A stretch of DNA of 64,000 bases from Cloeon dipterum (taxonomy: Eukaryota; Arthropoda; Insecta; Ephemeroptera; Baetidae), in contig NC_088788.1 of the NCBI RefSeq assembly GCF_949628265.1, forward strand, positions 8,060,001 through 8,124,000, in the 5' to 3' direction. A model generated the notes under the pieces. It saw nothing but the letters and a program-made list of their open reading frames with translations. It had not been told where the DNA came from and made no database searches. Position 1 is the first letter of the stretch, and the number at the start of each line of letters is the position of its first letter. The position numbers were made by a program, and so were the translations under genes. This document shows, one piece after another, positions 16,883 to 60,839 of this stretch.

Positions 16883-24581
<7,699 letters not shown>

Positions 24582-24861: not shown

Positions 24862-27800
24862 TCACAAGCAGAAGCAGATGGGCTTGAGGAGGTAGTTGCT
24901 GACGCACCAGCTGGCGTTGCCGTAGAGGTTCATGCGGGCGACGGGGCCGTGCACTTCGTAACGGTTGTCGGCCACCTTGCTGACAGTGGCCTGGAAGTGG
25001 GCGTCGCCCGGCATTGTCCGAACCACGAGCTGCAGGTGGTGCTGGCCCATCTCGCGCGCCGACATCACAGAACCCACGCTCAGCGCCGCGCACTCCGGCG
25101 CAGACATCAGCGCCGTGTTCAGCCGGGCCACTACCGCCTCTGCCGCCTTGTGGGGCACGCTCCGCGTTTCCACAGGGCGACTCGTCTGATTTAAGGGAGA
25201 AATATAATTGATGGTTTAGTGGAATTTGAAACACCACATTAGCCCCCGTTGAAAGACTGGAAGTCTGTGTGATTTAAAAACGATTATGGGGCTTCGAAGG
25301 GGAGTTTTGAGAGGCTCTCTTCGACTTTACAAGGTGCTAAAGTGGCTATTCCAGTGCCAGGAGGGGGGCCTAGTGTGAAGTGTTGACTTTTCTTTTCTTA
25401 TAATTCGGCTTCCTGACCCCTTATTTATTAAAATTTAAGAGAAAAGTTTCCATTAGAGCCCTAATTTTAATGCTAACGACTTTTCTGGGAGCAATTCTCT
25501 CACCTGGCAAGTGCAGAAGGATTCAGGTATGCTGGCGGACTCGCAGGTCCTGTTCTCAGGGATGGATCTGAAAAGGCTGATTCCCCGTGTCGTGGTTCTC
25601 GGGTGTTTCAGCCCTTTGTCAGGGTGGATTAGATCCGTCAGGGTGGCGTGCAGGTCGAAGGGCGTCGTTAGCCGGGAAGCGGCGTTTTGCCTAAGGTTTC
25701 TAACTGCTTCAGGGTATAGCTTCTCGAACCAGGGTGGCAGCACCATGTACGCCGCTGGCAGGCAACTTTCTAGCCAACCCTGAAAATTCAAATACAATGT
25801 TTTTATTTTGCTATCAATTTAATTTTAATTCGAAACACACAAGAAAAATATTTTTTATTGCAAAATAGTCGTTTTTATTGTTCAACTAGCTGGTTTTTAT
25901 TTAAAAAAAAGGCAAAAATTTGAATGCGAGTTGGGAAATGCATATTTGCTTAAGGAAATATGAGAATTGTTTTAATAGCTAAAAGATTTTTATTTAAAAA
26001 TTATTAAAAAATTGATTTATATTGAAAATTTCTTATTTTAACTTAAATTTAGGGGTAGATTTTGGGTTATCTGACCTGGTAAGTGTCCCTGATGGGCCCC
26101 CAGCGCATGCCGTGGTCGCTGATGAAGAGGAGGGCGGTGCGGTTGAAGTCGATTGCGTTGACAGCGGCGGCGAAGGCGGCGTCGCCGATGTGCGGCATGG
26201 TGAGCACGTCGTGCGACACCGAGTTGGACCAGAAAAGGCCAAACCAGTTGGACTCGGCGAACCGCTGCCGCACCTTGGACAGGTAGCCCAGCAGGTTGTG
26301 CACCGTCAGCCTCGAGCCGCTGCACAGTTTCACGTTCCACTTTTTCAGGTGGCCAATTTGTTCCTCCGCGTTCTGGAAAAAAAAATTAGGACTTTTTGAC
26401 CTCGAAAAAGAAATTTTAATGACCTGGAGGAAAGGTCGAGCGTAGTAATCGGTGGGCTGTTGGAGGAATCCGGCCTTGGCATAGTTGAAGGTGGTCATCC
26501 AGGTGCTGTCCTCGGCGTAGACGGTGCGGAAGCCGGCATTGGCGAAGCGGCGCCACACGAAGGGACACGCGTCGATGGCCCGCTCCGGACCCGGCCACGG
26601 ACACAATTCTTTCAGCTCCGACTCGGCCAGGCCCGTCAGCAGCGGCATCAGGTTCGGAAAGGTGTTGTCCGCCACCTTGTTGTAGCCCAGCAGCGGCACG
26701 CCGCCCGCCGCCTCCAACGCCGCCACGCTCAACGGCAGCTCCCGCAGCATGTTCAGACGGGACACCGAGTCGATTCCCAAAATCACCACGCTTACCTGAT
26801 AAAAAGACAAATTTAAATATTTTTTATTTTACATTTATTTGGTTTTAATTTAATTTATAAAATCATATTAATTTTTGTAATCGTGACGTGTCATTTATAT
26901 CTAATATTTATAATTTCACTGGTTTTCTTCTAAAAAAAAAGATGATAAAGCCTGCATGCAAACTAGTCTTTACAAGAATATTTTAACGATATAAATAATT
27001 TTGATTTGGCCAGTTCATAAAAATTTACTTCTTGTTCAATTTGCGAACACAATAATAATTTTAAAGTAACAGTCTTTATGAAATTGTAAAAACATTTCAT
27101 CTCACCTGATTTGGGCTTTGGTCTGCATCTGTGCAGCGTCCCTCGACGTTCGGCTTGAGGGGCACGAAGGCGTGGAAGTCCTTGTAAGCGAGCTGCGGGC
27201 CGCCGCGCGTCGAATTCTTGTAGCACTCGACCCGCACGAACTCGTGCCGCTGCTCCACTCTGTCCCGGTTTTTGAACGGAATGCACATCTTGCTAAATCT
27301 GAAATTAATTTTAATTTATACAAGAAAAAATAACAAACTCGTTGAGTTTAGAAATTGATTAAAAGTCTGTTTGTTTTTAAAAGATTAACAACTATAAATA
27401 TTTTTTTTTTGCAATTCAGGCCTAATCAAAACAAGGAAACAAAGAAGTTTTTAGTTGATTGTTACTAACACGGATTTGTTGTCGACGCCAGCGGCGTCAG
27501 GCGCGGCCCTGGTGAAGGGCCGGTAGCAGCAGCTCAGGTTCTTGGCCAGCGAACTCAGGTAGAGCGAGTCCAGGTCGCTCTGCACCAACGCTGGACCGCG
27601 CGTCTTCAGTTTTCCCTGCAGAGGCCACCAATCCTTGTCGCACTAAACAAAATAAAAAAGGATTTTTTTCAATTTCTTATTTATTCAATAATACATTTTT
27701 CTATTACTTTTAAGCAGAAAATATTATTGAACAAAATGTTATTTTGAAAATCTCTCTATTTTGTTTATTTCTTGACAGTCCACATTTATTTATAAACATA

Positions 27801-41720: not shown

Positions 41721-41870
41721 TAATTCGTCCTGGTCGCGGCAAAATTGCGCAACGTTCAACAAACACCCAAATTTTCATTGTCGAATTGATTGTTGACCTT
41801 TTCTTGCAACAAGGAAATTCGCGTTTGGTTGTTGAAAGTTACGCAATTTTGCCGGGACCAGGACGAATTA
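41721..41870. repeat. Near-perfect inverted repeat between convergent TMIE and MINDY-4 genes
   Basis: Arms 41721-41776 and 41813-41870 are inverted copies over about 55 bp, with landmarks TAATTCGTCCTGGTC, CGGCAAAATTGCG and TTCAACAA. A spacer of about 36 bp lies between them. It is a short foldback element, or the source of a long RNA hairpin if transcribed in either 3' untranslated region. Confidence 0.8.
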
Positions 41871-52677: not shown

Positions 52678-55600
52678 ATGGGGGAAGACCAGGACCAACA
52701 GTTCTGCCTGCGGTGGAACAACCACCCGACGAACCTGGCCGACGTTCTGAGCAGTCTGCTGCAGCGTGAGGCGCTCACCGACGTCACCCTGGCCTGCTCA
52801 GGCCACACCTTCAGGGCGCACCAAATCATGCTGTCCGCCTGCAGCCCCTACTTCGAGGCCCTTTTCCTACAGAATACGCACCCCCACCCCATCATCTTCC
52901 TCAAGGATGTCAACTTTGTCGAGATGAAGGCACTTCTCCAGTTCATGTATAAGGGTAAGCATTTTAATTTAGTTGGAAAAAAGCGGCTAAAAAACAATTT
53001 TATTCCAATGTTATTGCTTAATATTTATTTAAATTTAATTTATTTTTATCATTTACATCCCTGTTTGAAATGAATTATCTCATTTTCTTCGAGTATTTTA
53101 ATAAATCATTTCATTATATTTTCTTCTGTGGTTCTAGCCAATTTTAAATATTTAAAATATACTGTTTTTGGACAGTATTATTTACTGTAGTGTTTGTTTG
53201 GTTTAGTTTTTTCGCCGTTTATTCTTTCCAATTTTTTAAATCTTAAGTGTTAGGAGAAGTCCTGTCTTTTTGTTTATTTAAAAACGCCTTTAGAGTTGTA
53301 AGCGATTTTTTAAATTTAAAAATGCTCAGCAATTTTCCATTTAAATTTTGTTGTCTTGATTTTTGCTATCTTTTGGCATTACAAATATTTATTTATTTTT
53401 AACCGTAATTATCTTTTGCATTTGAATTTTGTTTTTGCTTTTTATATTTACTTGAAAATTGCAATCCGTTTTCCATTTCTTTTAATTATTGTCAATACGT
53501 TTTTCTTAAATTTTTAGTAATTAATTTTCGTTAGCAAAATCTTTGGGAAATCGTTTAATTCCCTTGTCTGTGATGTTTTAGTTAAATTCCAACTCCATAT
53601 CCTTCATTTTTCGCTTTAAAGTTCACAAACTTCTGATTTTTCTGTCCAATTTTTTAAATAAAAATTGCAAAATATTATTTTTAAATTTATATTTAATATT
53701 TACTCATTTTTCTAAATATACAAGCCTGAATACCCGTTTTACATTTCTACTCTAATAAAATAAAATGTTTATTTTATTTTACTTTATTTTCTTTCTTAAA
53801 TTTTGAACTGGGTTTCAATCCCAATCTGATTGTGAGCAATTTTCCAACGTCGCTACAGCTTGTCAACATATCTAAAATATATTGTTGTTAAAAAAAAATT
53901 CGTAATTTTCGCTATTATAGTTTTTCTGATTCATTTCTCATTTGCAGGTGAGGTTAACGTGAGCCAGAATGTGCTGCCACGCTTTTTGAAGACGGCTGAA
54001 GCGCTCAAGATCCGCGGTTTGACCGACGGCATGGGCGGCAACCGCAAGGAGGCCAGTTCTAGTGGAGGCGCTGTTGCAGCAGACAAGTCTGTGAATGAAC
54101 AGACGCGCACCTCTCCTCCTCCCGAGAAGAGGAAAAGACGGCACTCTGGCGGTGTCGTCGCACGCGCCAGCCCCATCCCTAATAATGACCATCAGAGCGA
54201 CTCGCAGGTGAAAAATCAAATAACTAAAAATCTTGAAAAAAGATGATCTTTTTCTTAGCTTTAAAAAAGGAATTATTTTTTTCTTGACGTTTCTTAGAAG
54301 CTTTTTTTATTGAATTAAGTATTTTCCTTTTAAATCGCATTTTGTCCAACTTGAATTTGAAATTTGAATTGTGTTGGAATTGCAGTGCAGCAGTTATAAG
54401 AGCAATTCAAGCCAGGCGGCCTCGTTGCTGGCCGGCGGCGAACTGTCGGTGGTGCCGCCGTCGCAGCTGGAGGCCGACCTGGAGCAGGAGGTGCTGGACG
54501 TAAACCCGGACGAACTATCCATTAAGGAGGAGGAGGACGACGAATACCACGACGTCGAGGCCGTCATGGCGGTAAGCTCCCCCGACTGAAATGCGTTTGT
54601 CTGCCAGCCGAGTGCCAATAAATAAATAAACAAATAAAACCGTCGAAAGAGAAGCGTCGGAACGGGTTGGGGGGAACATGACCACGATTTGCGCGCGGCC
54701 GATCTTTGCTCTACGCCAAATGCATGGGAGTAATTGTACAAAACTGAGAGATTTAAGACTGAGTCCCTTGTAATAATTTGATCTTTTGGGCCGCCGTGAG
54801 CTTAAGAACACAGGCGGCCGCGCCCTCCCTGCCCGCACTGACCAGAGCAAGCAGTTTCTGGTCTCGTTTTGCGCCGAAAAGCAGTCCACTCGTCGCTTCA
54901 GATTTTCTTGCATTCAACAGTGCCAACGAATTTGAACACGGAGCTCCGAGAGAAGGTGAAAATTGTTTGTATGTCCAGAGTTGCGTTCAAAATTGGTTAT
55001 TGAATAAATATGAACTGAAGAGAAATTGGAAAAAAAGCTAACTGAAATTTGCAATCCTAACAAATGAGTTGGATTTATTAATTGCTTTAAAAAGTGACCA
55101 AAAATGCAGTTTTTTGTATTTAAAAATAAATAATTAAGTTTAAAATCATCAGGATTTAAACTGTTTTCAGCTTGAGTCATTTTTAATATTAGAAAACAAT
55201 TATTTTCTTTGGCATTTTTTTATAATAAGATGATTTGGATTTTAATCCAAAAATTAAATAGAGTTAATGTTTACGGCTAAATATTGTTCATTTCCTGAGA
55301 TTTCCTTTCCTCTTTTGGATTAATTTGGTAATATCAAGAGAGACTATACATAATTCTCTAGCTATCTGGATCTGAAACTTAATCCAGTTTTTAAAGTACA
55401 TTCTGCATTTGAACCAAAGCTTTTAACAAATTTTGACCTAGAAATGATGTTCCAAATAAATTTGATGACTTGCTTAATTAACGTAAATATAAGTTAATGA
55501 GATTTTTTTATTCACACGAGATGTTAAAACTAGCACAATGAAATAATGTTCAAAATTGAAAATAAAACCAATTCGGTCAGGCTGCAATTAGTTATTGCAT

Positions 55601-57687
55601 TAAGTTTTATTGACGACTTAAATATTTGCATCTGTCAAAATTAATAGAATTCTTTTCTCCAATTTATAGTTAATTCTTTTACCAGAACTCCTAATTTTAT
55701 CTTTATATTTTTATTGATTTTATCATTCATTTAATTCTTTTTGTTTTTGTATTGAAAACAACAAGAAATCGAATAGTTTTTACTTTTAAATTTATATTAT
55801 GATCCAACAACTCTTCAATTTTGATGAAATTCTTTAGAGAGAGGTTTTCTTTGTTTTAAAATATTTTTTAACCTAGTTTGAACGCAAAATGGAACTTGGA
55901 TAAATAGTTTTCACTCTCGGAGCTGCGTGGTTCATAATGAAACTGTCGAAATAGAAAATTGAAGGCGCTTTGGACTGCTTTCTGGGTGCGGGACGAGACG
56001 AGTTTTGGCTTGTTAGCTAACTCGAGTGCCTGCATTTGTTGTAGAGCAAAGAGGCGAGCAAAGTGTTGGCCGAAGACGAAACCGTTTTGCGCTTCGCCTG
56101 CTCCCAGCAGCCGCTGCAGGCCCATCCGCCGCCCCCGCCGCCTCCGCAGGAGTCGCAGCTGCCGCGCGTAAACATACTCATTCCGCCGCAGTGGCCGGAG
56201 CCGCCTCCGCCCGCTGCCCCAGCTGCTGCGCCCCCGGCGGTCGTGCCGGCGGCGCGCGGCAACAAGTTCCGCTCGTGCTGGCTGCAGTCGTACTCGTGGC
56301 TGCAGTACGACGCGCGGCTCGACCTCATGTTCTGCCAGTTCTGCCGTAAGTGGTCCAAGACGCTGCCGGTGCGCACCTCCTTCGCCGACGGCAGCCGCAA
56401 CTTCCGCCACGAGATCGTGCTGCACCACCACAAGTGCAAGGCGCACCACCTGTGCATGCAGCGCGAGGAGGAGCAGGCCTCCAGCCCCTCCGCTTACTGA
56501 ATCGCCGCCACGGCCACCGGGAAAACACACTATTTTTAATTAATTATTTTAAGGAAATATTCTAGTTTTTCGATGAATGTGATCGCCAAGCTGTGAATGT
56601 GCGCTCGGTTCGAACGCCCCAACCCCCCAAAAAAACAAGCAAACAAATGAGAAATTTTTGTCGATTTTTTACTGTAGTAATTATTCATCACCGTTTGGCT
56701 GGTCCAGCTTCGAGAGATCCGGAATCTCTTTGGAAAATTCATTCCTTTTGGAAAATGAGTGCTTTTTGATGCTTGATTGGCTGGTTCCAAATTTCTTATT
56801 GCTATTCTAATCGGCAGGTCCTAAACTTATGAATAAATATACAATATTATTGTATTTAATAATCGGCAGGTCCTAGATTTAATCAGAGATCTCTGAAATT
56901 GAGATAAGAATTTGATTCTCAGCCCGGTTTGCTTGAGAATCCAAAGTAACTTTTTGGAAGGCAATTTACGGGGGAAAATGACGGTTGGACGAAGAGAACT
57001 TTCCTAGCCATTTAGTACGCATCTCGTGACTTGCAAAATATTGCCCGTTTTTTCAAAATATGGAAAATATTCCGAAATATTCACATTTTCCTTTAAAAAT
57101 CCTCAAATAGGGGTTCGAAATAATTTTCGTCTGACTTGAATAGTTTTTGGAGTTTTTCCAGAATTCCTTTCATGTTTTCCTTTTATCTTTTCTCAAGAAA
57201 GCTGTTAAAACGGGCGGTAAAAAATGCAACTCAGCGGAAGAGCAAAAATACTCCTTAATTCCAACGTCATTTTGCTCCCCAAATATTTTTCGTAATATTA
57301 AAGTGCTGTGCGCGAAATCCCAAATAAAGAAAAATTATTGCGTCTAAAGAAGAGGACGGAAATTGAAAGTTGTGAAGTTGCAACGTACCTGTTGTTGTAC
57401 AATTCGTGTCTGCACCGCGCACCCCTATGAAAATTTATCTTTGTAAACTAAGTCGGAGTAGCACCACAATAAAAAGATCTTAAGCAAGCGCTTGCTCTTT
57501 CTCTTGCACTCGGTCTGGCAGACGTGTATTTCCCTCTACTTGCCCTCGACTCGATCGCTTATTTTGTTTGTAAAGCAGGACGGCAGCCAGGACGAGACGT
57601 TAGACTACAAGGACCTGACCATGTCAGAGTCGAGAGACACGGGCCAACACCCTGGCCAAAGCAGCGACCCTCTCGACGGACTGGACG
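52678..57687 (+). CDS. fru: Fruitless-like BTB transcription factor, common exons
   Basis: Common coding exons: 52678-52954, 53948-54207, 54386-54571 (241 codons), then connector exon 57579-57687, used before the C2H2 terminal exons. The BTB/POZ dimerisation domain (about residues 8-120) has the fru wording: [71 protein letters not shown] basic nuclear-signal-like [13 protein letters not shown] and an acidic stretch (IKEEEDD) follow. Fru proteins are nuclear regulators of neural and sexual identity. The connector enters in phase 0 and leaves in phase 1, which is the entry phase of all five finger exons downstream. An acceptor at 52612-52613 shows that at least one non-coding exon lies further upstream, as expected of a multi-promoter gene. 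Confidence 0.9.
54572..54589 (+). CDS. Read-through end of exon 3: BTB-only isoform
   Basis: If the donor at 54572 is not used, translation adds VSSPD and stops at 54587-54589. A cluster of AATAAA-type signals follows at about 54617-54640. This would give a 246-residue protein without zinc fingers. Confidence 0.45.
   Translation, partial: VSSPD
56045..56500 (+). CDS. fru: Alternative terminal exon with TTF-type zinc-binding domain
   Basis: Acceptor at 56043-56044, phase 0, in register with common exon 3 (392-residue isoform). The exon encodes 151 residues. A Pro/Ala-rich linker ([11 protein letters not shown]…) is followed by a domain with [23 protein letters not shown] spacing, [20 protein letters not shown] and a final H. 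That layout (WL..Y.WL.YD….MFC..C … G..NFR…L..H….H) is typical of TTF-type fingers found in hAT-transposase-related proteins such as ZNF862, and is unrelated to the C2H2 pairs used by the other isoforms. An AATAAA at about 57465 could serve it. I do not know of this domain in fruitless of model insects. Confidence 0.72.
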   Translation, partial: SKEASKVLAEDETVLRFACSQQPLQAHPPPPPPPQESQLPRVNILIPPQWPEPPPPAAPAAAPPAVVPAARGNKFRSCWLQSYSWLQYDARLDLMFCQFCRKWSKTLPVRTSFADGSRNFRHEIVLHHHKCKAHHLCMQREEEQASSPSAY

Positions 57688-58135: not shown

Positions 58136-58365
58136 GTCAGATTTTTGTATTTTTTGAAAAACTGAAGGAGTCGCCGAATCTAAGCAGGTGTAAGCTTTGC
58201 GGCAAAATTGTGACCCACTGTAGAAACCATTACCGTGTGCACTTTCCGGGCAAATTCCGATGTGCCCTGTGCGGTAGTTACTTTACCCGCAGAGACAATT
58301 TGCTCGCGCACTTCCGAGCGAAACACCCCTTCGAGCCAGTCCCTTATCTCCTGAGTGCAAGCTAA
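58136..58365 (+). CDS. fru: Alternative terminal exon 1, C2H2 zinc-finger pair
   Basis: Phase-1 acceptor at 58134-58135; total isoform 353 residues. Two fingers: CKLCGKIVTHCRNHYRVH and CALCGSYFTRRDNLLAHFRAKH, then a short PFEPVPYLLSAS tail. The finger text resembles the fru finger pair (CNKIVSN…H…H, then RRDN..AH). Confidence 0.85.
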
Positions 58366-59069: not shown

Positions 59070-59338
59070 GCTTGGGCGTGCTGCCCAGTCCGCAAGAGGT
59101 CAACTTGATGTTCCGCAAGCTGAAGAGCGGCGATCGCGAGTGTCTGGTTTGCGGCAAGCGCCTGTCCAACTATCGAAACCACTATTTCATTCACCGGCCA
59201 GGCAACTTTCCTTGTCCCGTGTGCGAACGCTTGTTCGCCCGCCAGGACCAAATGAAGCAGCACGCGCGCTCGGTGCACATGCGGGACCAAGTCCTTCAGC
59301 AGGACCAGCCGAACAGCAAGCGAAAGCTCCGGACCTGA
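59070..59338 (+). CDS. fru: Alternative terminal exon 2, C2H2 zinc-finger pair
   Basis: Phase-1 acceptor at 59068-59069; isoform 366 residues. Fingers CLVCGKRLSNYRNHYFIH and CPVCERLFARQDQMKQHARS…H. A lysine/arginine-rich tail (SKRKLRT) ends the protein. It ends only 19 bp before the next terminal exon. Confidence 0.85.
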
Positions 59339-59357: not shown

Positions 59358-59635
59358 GGTGCACGGTCCGCCACCGCAACTACGACTCGGTGTTCACAAA
59401 GCTGGCGACCGGGGCGCGCGAGTGCCGCCTCTGCCACAAGGTGGTCATGAACTACGCCAATCACTACCTGGTTCACTTCCGCGAGAAGTTCGCCTGCCCC
59501 TTCTGCCCCAGCTCCTTCTCCCGCCCCTCCTACATGAAGCAGCACATCAAGGTCAACCACCAGGACAAGGACAAGGACAAGCAGCCCCCCGCCGAGTCGC
59601 AGCCGCAGCAGCCGCAGCCCTCCGCTAGCTCATAG
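59358..59635 (+). CDS. fru: Alternative terminal exon 3, C2H2 zinc-finger pair
   Basis: Acceptor at 59356-59357 lies directly behind the stop of terminal exon 2, so the two are mutually exclusive. Isoform 369 residues. Fingers CRLCHKVVMNYANHYLVH and CPFCPSSFSRPSYMKQHIKV…H, then a Lys/Asp and Gln/Pro-rich tail. An AATAAATAAA at about 60274-60283 could end this form. Confidence 0.85.
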
Positions 59636-60585: not shown

Positions 60586-60839
60586 GCATGGCAAACTTGA
60601 CCTCGGATAGCGACATTAAAGATCAGAAATCCATGTTTTTACGACTGCCGAACGGGCAGAAGCAGTGCAGACTGTGTTTCAAAGTAATATCGAACCTCAA
60701 GAACCACTACCTGTCTCACAACCCGGGCAACTACCCGTGTCCCTACTGCTTCCGGCGCTTCTCGCGTAAGGACAACGCCAAGCAGCACATCCGACTCAAA
60801 CATCGCATGGTGCCAGGATACCTCGACGCCAAGATTTAA
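60586..60839 (+). CDS. fru: Alternative terminal exon 4, C2H2 zinc-finger pair
   Basis: Phase-1 acceptor at 60584-60585; isoform 361 residues. Fingers CRLCFKVISNLKNHYLSH and CPYCFRRFSRKDNAKQHIRLKH, short tail (MVPGYLDAKI). Confidence 0.85.

What the first reader, a model, noticed from the sequence alone, without database searches (positions are those of the whole stretch)
56045..56500. Fruitless-like gene with a TTF-type zinc-finger terminal exon
A terminal exon in the correct phase for common exon 3 encodes a TTF-like domain of the kind found in hAT-transposase-derived proteins, instead of the C2H2 pair. A BTB-TTF isoform would couple fru dimerisation to an unrelated DNA-binding domain, and suggests capture of transposase-derived sequence as an alternative exon.
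Basis: partly seen in the sequence, partly recalled or inferred. Interest (0 to 1): 0.72.

Follow-up and report, generated by a model that had tools for sequence, protein, structure and literature searches.

The report
Fruitless gene with transposase-type finger exon
In this insect-like genome the courtship gene fruitless appears to carry an extra last exon that would swap its usual DNA-binding zinc fingers for a different finger type known from transposase-like proteins, and the splice site of that exon lies inside a long RNA hairpin that could control its use.

Summary
ORF 56045-56500 follows an AG acceptor in phase 0, matching the exon that ends at 54571. It encodes a finger over Pfam's cut-off for zf-C17orf113 (E 3.6e-10). 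It cannot be its own gene as it stands: the codon before it is TAG (the acceptor itself) and its first Met lies inside the finger. GC at codon position 3 is 0.99 against 0.40 at position 2, so the frame looks maintained as protein. The BTB is closest to Fru among four recalled Drosophila BTBs (76% against 51-56%). Five C2H2-pair terminal exons follow after a further common exon. The finger is the only match in the 190-Mb genome and no hAT domain was matched in the window, so "transposase capture" is plausible but untested. That suggests RNA-structure control of C2H2 versus TTF isoforms, or else a decayed foldback element. No transcripts and no other insect genome could be searched, so expression and conservation remain open.

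The parts
52678..52954 (+). Coding part of exon C1: start Met and most of the BTB domain; ends in phase 1 before GTAAGC. The exon's 5' end was not determined
   Evidence: BTB PF00651 E 1.5e-19; donor at 52955
53948..54207 (+). Exon C2: end of BTB (GEVNV...RGLTDG) and connector
   Evidence: reading frame and splice sites by eye; with C1 joined the BTB gives 85 bits
54386..54571 (+). Exon C3: acidic connector, ends in phase 0 (ATG GCG|GTAAGC)
54703..54724 (+). 5' strand of the basal helix that buries the TTF-exon acceptor
   Evidence: pairs with 56031-56052, 20 Watson-Crick + 1 G-U of 22
54830..55010 (+). 5' arm of the intron foldback (core)
   Evidence: aligned with the reverse complement of 55855-56034
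55855..56034 (+). 3' arm of the intron foldback (core)
56031..56052 (+). 3' strand of the basal helix; contains the AG acceptor (56043-56044) and the first 8 exon bases
56045..56500 (+). Alternative terminal exon: Pro-rich linker, C17orf113/TTF-type finger, TGA stop
56291..56476 (+). zf-C17orf113 domain
   Evidence: Pfam PF25431, residues 83-144 of the exon; the same place found in the genome search
56832..56837 (+). AATAAA, candidate poly(A) signal of the TTF isoform (further AATAAA at 57323 and 57468, ATTAAA at 57297)
57579..57687 (+). Next common exon (C4/C5-like): enters in phase 0, leaves in phase 1
   Evidence: sequence and open frame by eye
58136..58365 (+). C2H2-pair terminal exon
   Evidence: motif and phase-1 acceptor; not scanned with Pfam
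59070..59338 (+). C2H2-pair terminal exon (59097 is another possible start)
   Evidence: motif; zf-C2H2 25.8 bits, cut-off 25.2
59358..59635 (+). C2H2-pair terminal exon (59346 is another possible start)
   Evidence: motif; zf-C2H2 22.8 bits, below the 25.2 cut-off
60586..60839 (+). C2H2-pair terminal exon (60553 and 60622 are other possible starts)
   Evidence: motif; zf-C2H2 32.5 bits
62256..62458 (+). C2H2-pair terminal exon
   Evidence: motif and phase-1 acceptor; not scanned with Pfam

Best explanation
The window holds the fruitless orthologue of an arthropod, probably an insect. It has an extra alternative terminal exon (56045-56500). Splicing C3 (ending 54571) to this exon, with poly(A) use downstream of 56500, would give a BTB protein ending in one C17orf113/TTF-type zinc finger. 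Splicing C3 onward to 57579 would give the ordinary C2H2-pair isoforms. The BTB would let the TTF isoform multimerise with the C2H2 isoforms and bring a different DNA-binding module to the same complexes, or act as a competitor. Shown from sequence: the coding frame, the domain, the matching splice phases and the absence of a start codon ahead of the finger. Inferred: transcription, multimerisation, DNA binding and transposase ancestry. Inferred more weakly (about 0.35): the foldback in the intron sequesters the acceptor and so favours the C2H2 isoforms until it is opened.
For: Pfam PF25431 above cut-off, with negative control frames. Phase 0 to phase 0, the TAG before the frame being the acceptor itself. 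First Met is residue 95 of 151, inside the finger. Codon-position GC 0.55/0.40/0.99 in the domain; C1 0.57/0.32/0.84 and C3 0.69/0.34/0.84 have the same pattern, C2 0.60/0.51/0.65 a weaker one. BTB 76% identical to recalled Drosophila Fru against 51-56% for recalled Lola, Ttk and Br. Five C2H2-pair exons downstream with phase-1 acceptors. AATAAA at 56832.
Against: No transcript, proteome or second-species evidence could be obtained. A phase match alone has a one-in-three chance, and other frames over the exon are open too. The assignment to fru rests on recalled sequences. For the gating step: the foldback could be a decayed element, since 2 of 20 background 10-kb regions held stronger foldbacks.
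Confidence: 0.82

Rival explanations
1. The TTF exon is the last exon of a separate gene whose start exon lies in the 54572-56044 intron.
For: A 92-aa open frame exists at 54763-55041 (+). The coding exon has no start codon ahead of its finger, so it needs an upstream exon of some kind.
Against: C3 offers a donor of the right phase 1.5 kb upstream, and much of the intron is self-complementary. The intron's open frames were not scanned against domain libraries, so this rests on position and phase.
Confidence: 0.08
2. The exon is a dead or barely used relic of a transposase insertion in a fru intron.
For: Single match in the genome, with no transcript evidence available. The finger type is that of hAT-like proteins (recalled).
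Against: Open for 151 codons, with GC3 of 0.99 in the domain and a splice site in phase. None of the 13 hAT dimer-domain places lies in the window.
Confidence: 0.1
3. The foldback is only a decayed palindromic element and has no role in splicing; it may have supplied the acceptor when it inserted. This concerns the intron and is compatible with the exon being real.
For: Stronger foldbacks occur in 2 of 20 background 10-kb regions; 7 of 660 background 2-kb windows reach its score of 185. The arms are only partly complementary, with many gaps.
Against: No other copy of the intron or of either arm was found in the genome at the DNA search's sensitivity. Of 1401 YAG sites in the window, 2 have a partner this good within 1.5 kb upstream and this acceptor is one (the 22-nt frame was chosen after seeing this helix). 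G-U exceeds A-C mismatches 10 to 4 in outer plus core helix (8:2 to 13:5 by scoring scheme), the direction expected if RNA pairing is kept, but weak.
Confidence: 0.6

Closest known systems
fruitless (fru) of Diptera
   Same: BTB over two common exons, connector exons, then alternative zinc-finger terminal exons. The Aedes gene is described as C1-C5 plus zA/zB/zC (PMC3572092, passages).
   Different: That paper's introduction says of Drosophila that all FRU isoforms have a C-terminal C2H2 finger domain. Here one terminal exon leaves earlier, after C3, and carries a C17orf113-type finger.
TTK-type BTB transcription factors with non-C2H2 ends (mod(mdg4) FLYWCH, Pipsqueak HTH)
   Same: An arthropod BTB combined with another DNA-binding domain; many mod(mdg4) isoforms carry FLYWCH (PMC11426971, passages).
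   Different: FLYWCH and HTH are the non-C2H2 DNA-interaction types named in the passages seen. Its Figure 6a also shows 'other domain types', which I could not see.
C17orf113-type zinc finger (Pfam PF25431)
   Same: Profile positions 1-62 of 63 matched above cut-off.
   Different: No hAT dimerisation domain (PF05699) was listed for the exon or the joined protein, and none of the 13 PF05699 places lies in the window. Here the finger would be joined to a BTB.
Drosophila Nmnat long-range RNA structure
   Same: An intronic pairing that decides between a terminal exon with its poly(A) signal and a downstream exon (PMC10790352, passages).
   Different: Nmnat's structure loops the exon out; here the helix would bury the terminal exon's own acceptor. 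Function was not tested here.

Membership tests
fruitless | BTB with FCLRWNN start, closest to Fru | tested here: met
   76% identity to recalled Drosophila Fru against 51-56% to recalled Lola, Ttk and Br; PF00651. Only these four recalled sequences were compared; no tree was made
fruitless | Alternative C2H2-pair terminal exons | tested here: met
   Five such exons with phase-1 acceptors by motif; of three scanned with Pfam, two pass the zf-C2H2 cut-off
fruitless | Sex-specific P1 exon with TRA/TRA-2 sites | not tested
   Not looked for
zf-C17orf113 (PF25431) | Score over Pfam cut-off across the domain | tested here: met
   40 bits against 29.5, positions 1-62 of 63
zf-BED | Match to PF02892 | tested here: not met
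   No match listed for this exon at max E 10
ZnF_TTF (SMART) | Match to the SMART profile | not testable with these tools
   SMART is not among the libraries
hAT-derived gene | hAT dimerisation domain in or near the gene | tested here: not met
   13 PF05699 places in the genome, none in the window
Structure-controlled alternative exon | Helix at a splice site stronger than chance | tested here: met
   Foldback z -9.34 over 60 shuffles; one of 2 such sites among 1401 YAG sites. Against: stronger foldbacks in 2 of 20 background regions
Structure-controlled alternative exon | Covariation or an effect of unpairing | not testable with these tools
   No relatives held; bench test needed

The most novel reading that the evidence does not exclude
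fruitless in this lineage makes a BTB-TTF isoform alongside its C2H2 isoforms, and the choice is set by a long intronic hairpin that hides the TTF acceptor. This would be a structure-gated switch between two unrelated DNA-binding modules in a sex-behaviour regulator.
Probability: 0.3. Interest if true: 0.75.

Novelty: new variant of a known kind. Interest (0 to 1): 0.52.

Why it matters
Fru isoforms differ in their zinc fingers, and the finger is taken to decide which genes are bound (established knowledge; a paper title to that effect was seen in a reference list). A terminal exon with an unrelated, transposase-type finger would show that this regulator's DNA-binding repertoire can be widened by acquiring a new domain as an alternative exon, comparable to the FLYWCH isoforms of mod(mdg4). 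The buried acceptor makes the isoform choice directly testable.

Tried and rejected
AlphaFold2 of the finger (77 residues, single sequence) reached mean pLDDT 63 and pTM 0.52, too low for a fold search, so none was run. The solved-structure search with the exon gave two weak matches, best E 0.41, to its proline-rich part. The same search with the BTB gave BTB proteins of other kinds, best E 2e-16, and no Fru in its 50 rows. NCBIfam gave nothing. The viral-contig scan gave two pattern matches, neither a relative by tblastn.

Literature, open-licence papers only: 0 papers for fruitless + 'TTF-type zinc finger', 0 for C17orf113, 0 for fruitless + mayfly + BTB. The capped lists (1 of 1; 20 of 251; 18 of 18; 2 of 2; 10 of 688; 7 of 7) show no title or abstract start that reports a BTB-TTF Fru; I saw only those listings. 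The 51-residue finger of shrimp Pmfru-1 was considered as a relative (PMC8858584, section 12 and passages); the text seen gives no sequence and has no 'TTF'. In the planthopper paper (PMC11050625, section 13 and passages) a Znf domain is reported for NlFRU-374 and NlFRU-377 and not for NlFRU-433: a lead only. PMC10027918 and PMC4033408 were read in passages; 'TTF' occurs 0 times in the main text of both. PMC10790352, PMC3572092 and PMC11426971 were also read in passages only.

Full report
What is there. The window is G000:C3:8060001-8124000 of a 190-Mb genome with 10 contigs. On the + strand lies a gene with a BTB domain over two exons (coding 52678-52954, and 53948-54207), a connector exon (54386-54571), a further common exon (57579-57687) and five exons that each encode a pair of C2H2 fingers and a stop, with candidate starts at 58136, 59070, 59358, 60586 and 62256. 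All exon ends are read from sequence, not from transcripts. Three of the five finger exons were scanned with Pfam; two pass the zf-C2H2 cut-off and the one at 59358 stays below it. The BTB is 76% identical to Drosophila Fru and 51-56% to Lola, Ttk and Br; those four sequences were recalled, not fetched. The exon plan resembles that of the Aedes gene, with C1-C5 followed by zinc-finger exons (PMC3572092, passages).

The exon in question. 56045-56500 is open for 151 codons and ends in TGA. The three bases before it are TAG, which serve as the AG acceptor, so the frame can only be entered by splicing or from a Met inside the exon. The first Met is residue 95, inside the finger. The phase is 0, the phase left by the exon ending at 54571. 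The C2H2 exons have acceptors in phase 1, which the exon 57579-57687 supplies. So the TTF exon would branch off one common exon earlier than the C2H2 exons. AATAAA occurs at 56832, 57323 and 57468.

The domain. Pfam zf-C17orf113 matches residues 83-144 with 40 bits (cut-off 29.5, E 3.6e-10), and no zf-BED match is listed. The joined BTB-TTF protein has both domains above cut-off; four other-frame or antisense translations of the stretch give no finger. Frame length alone is weak evidence, because frames of 110, 123, 158 and 223 aa overlap the same stretch. In the domain the GC fractions at codon positions 1-3 are 0.55, 0.40 and 0.99, a spread reached by 0 of 100,000 base shuffles. Exons C1 and C3 show the same pattern, C2 a weaker one. 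This is good evidence for a maintained protein frame in one genome, but not for expression.

Origin. The profile finds one place in the genome, this one (E up to 1, two candidates scored). The protein search finds itself plus one weak match at E 0.53. hAT dimer domains occur in 13 places, none in this window. zf-BED matches number 44, from 150 scored of 596 candidates, and 5 of the 13 hAT places have one within about 5.2 kb. So no resident donor of this finger is visible. Transposase ancestry follows only from the general character of such fingers, which I recall rather than tested.

The intron. Inverted repeats nest across 54703-56052. Against 60 dinucleotide shuffles the stretch has z -9.34 (54572-56060: -6.59), while three other stretches of the gene give -1.21, -1.30 and +0.69. 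The outer helix pairs 54703-54724 with 56031-56052 (20 Watson-Crick and 1 G-U of 22; -29.6 kcal/mol). In the ensemble fold of 54400-56500, 21 of the 22 bases at 56031-56052 have an unpaired probability below 0.2, the exception being 56039. Of 1401 YAG sites in the window, 2 have a partner with at least 20 Watson-Crick pairs within 1.5 kb upstream, and this is one; the 22-nt frame of that test was chosen after the helix was seen. In the outer plus core helix, G-U exceeds A-C mismatches 10:4 (8:2 to 13:5 over four scoring schemes), the direction expected if RNA pairing is kept; one-sided sign tests by hand give about 0.05-0.09. The looser inner part gives 6:1 in three schemes and 5:5 in one.

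Against a special role: the foldback is the strongest in the window by local alignment (185; next independent one 149 near 25.5 kb), but 7 of 660 background windows reach 185, in 2 of 20 regions picked at round coordinates. Foldbacks as such are therefore not rare here. No other genomic copy of the intron or of its arms was found; that search can miss diverged copies.

Mechanism. The most likely reading is an alternative terminal exon: early splicing and polyadenylation give BTB-TTF, and skipping gives BTB-C2H2. If the foldback acts, it would hide the TTF acceptor and favour C2H2 isoforms. RNA structures that block splice sites or decide a terminal exon, as in Drosophila Nmnat, are reviewed in PMC10790352 (passages). 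I put the exon at 0.82 and the gating at about 0.35.

Novelty. The passages seen on arthropod TTK-type BTB proteins name C2H2, HTH/Pipsqueak and FLYWCH as partners; a figure with 'other domain types' could not be seen (PMC11426971). The searches listed under Tried and rejected found no BTB-TTF Fru. They cover open-licence papers only, and no insect genome or protein database could be searched, so an already annotated relative may well exist.

Noticed in passing
window 54703-56052: Long imperfect intronic foldback whose basal helix contains the acceptor of the TTF exon; folded into the main report.
   Followed up: partly
window 41722-41869: The only other YAG site of 1401 with a 22-nt partner of at least 20 Watson-Crick pairs (21 of 22) within 1.5 kb upstream: a hairpin whose arms are about 100 nt apart.
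   Followed up: no
window around 25500-27500: Second-strongest inverted local alignment of the window, score 149, in a stretch with long open frames on the - strand.
   Followed up: no
G000 C2:2.5-4.5 Mb, C2:35.1-35.4 Mb, C4:30-33 Mb: Clusters of BTB-domain matches, many with internal stops in the six-frame reading (which may be introns), suggesting expanded BTB gene arrays (capped list).
   Followed up: no
G000 C4:28.8-31.6 Mb: Many zf-BED matches in long open frames packed in one region, overlapping a BTB-rich part of the contig.
   Followed up: no
window 20077-24565: Open frames that look like an RNA polymerase second-largest subunit; the resemblance is recalled, no family search was made.
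   Followed up: no
L017 and L022: Two background 10-kb regions hold stronger foldbacks (alignment scores 504 and 430), probably inverted-repeat elements.
   Followed up: no
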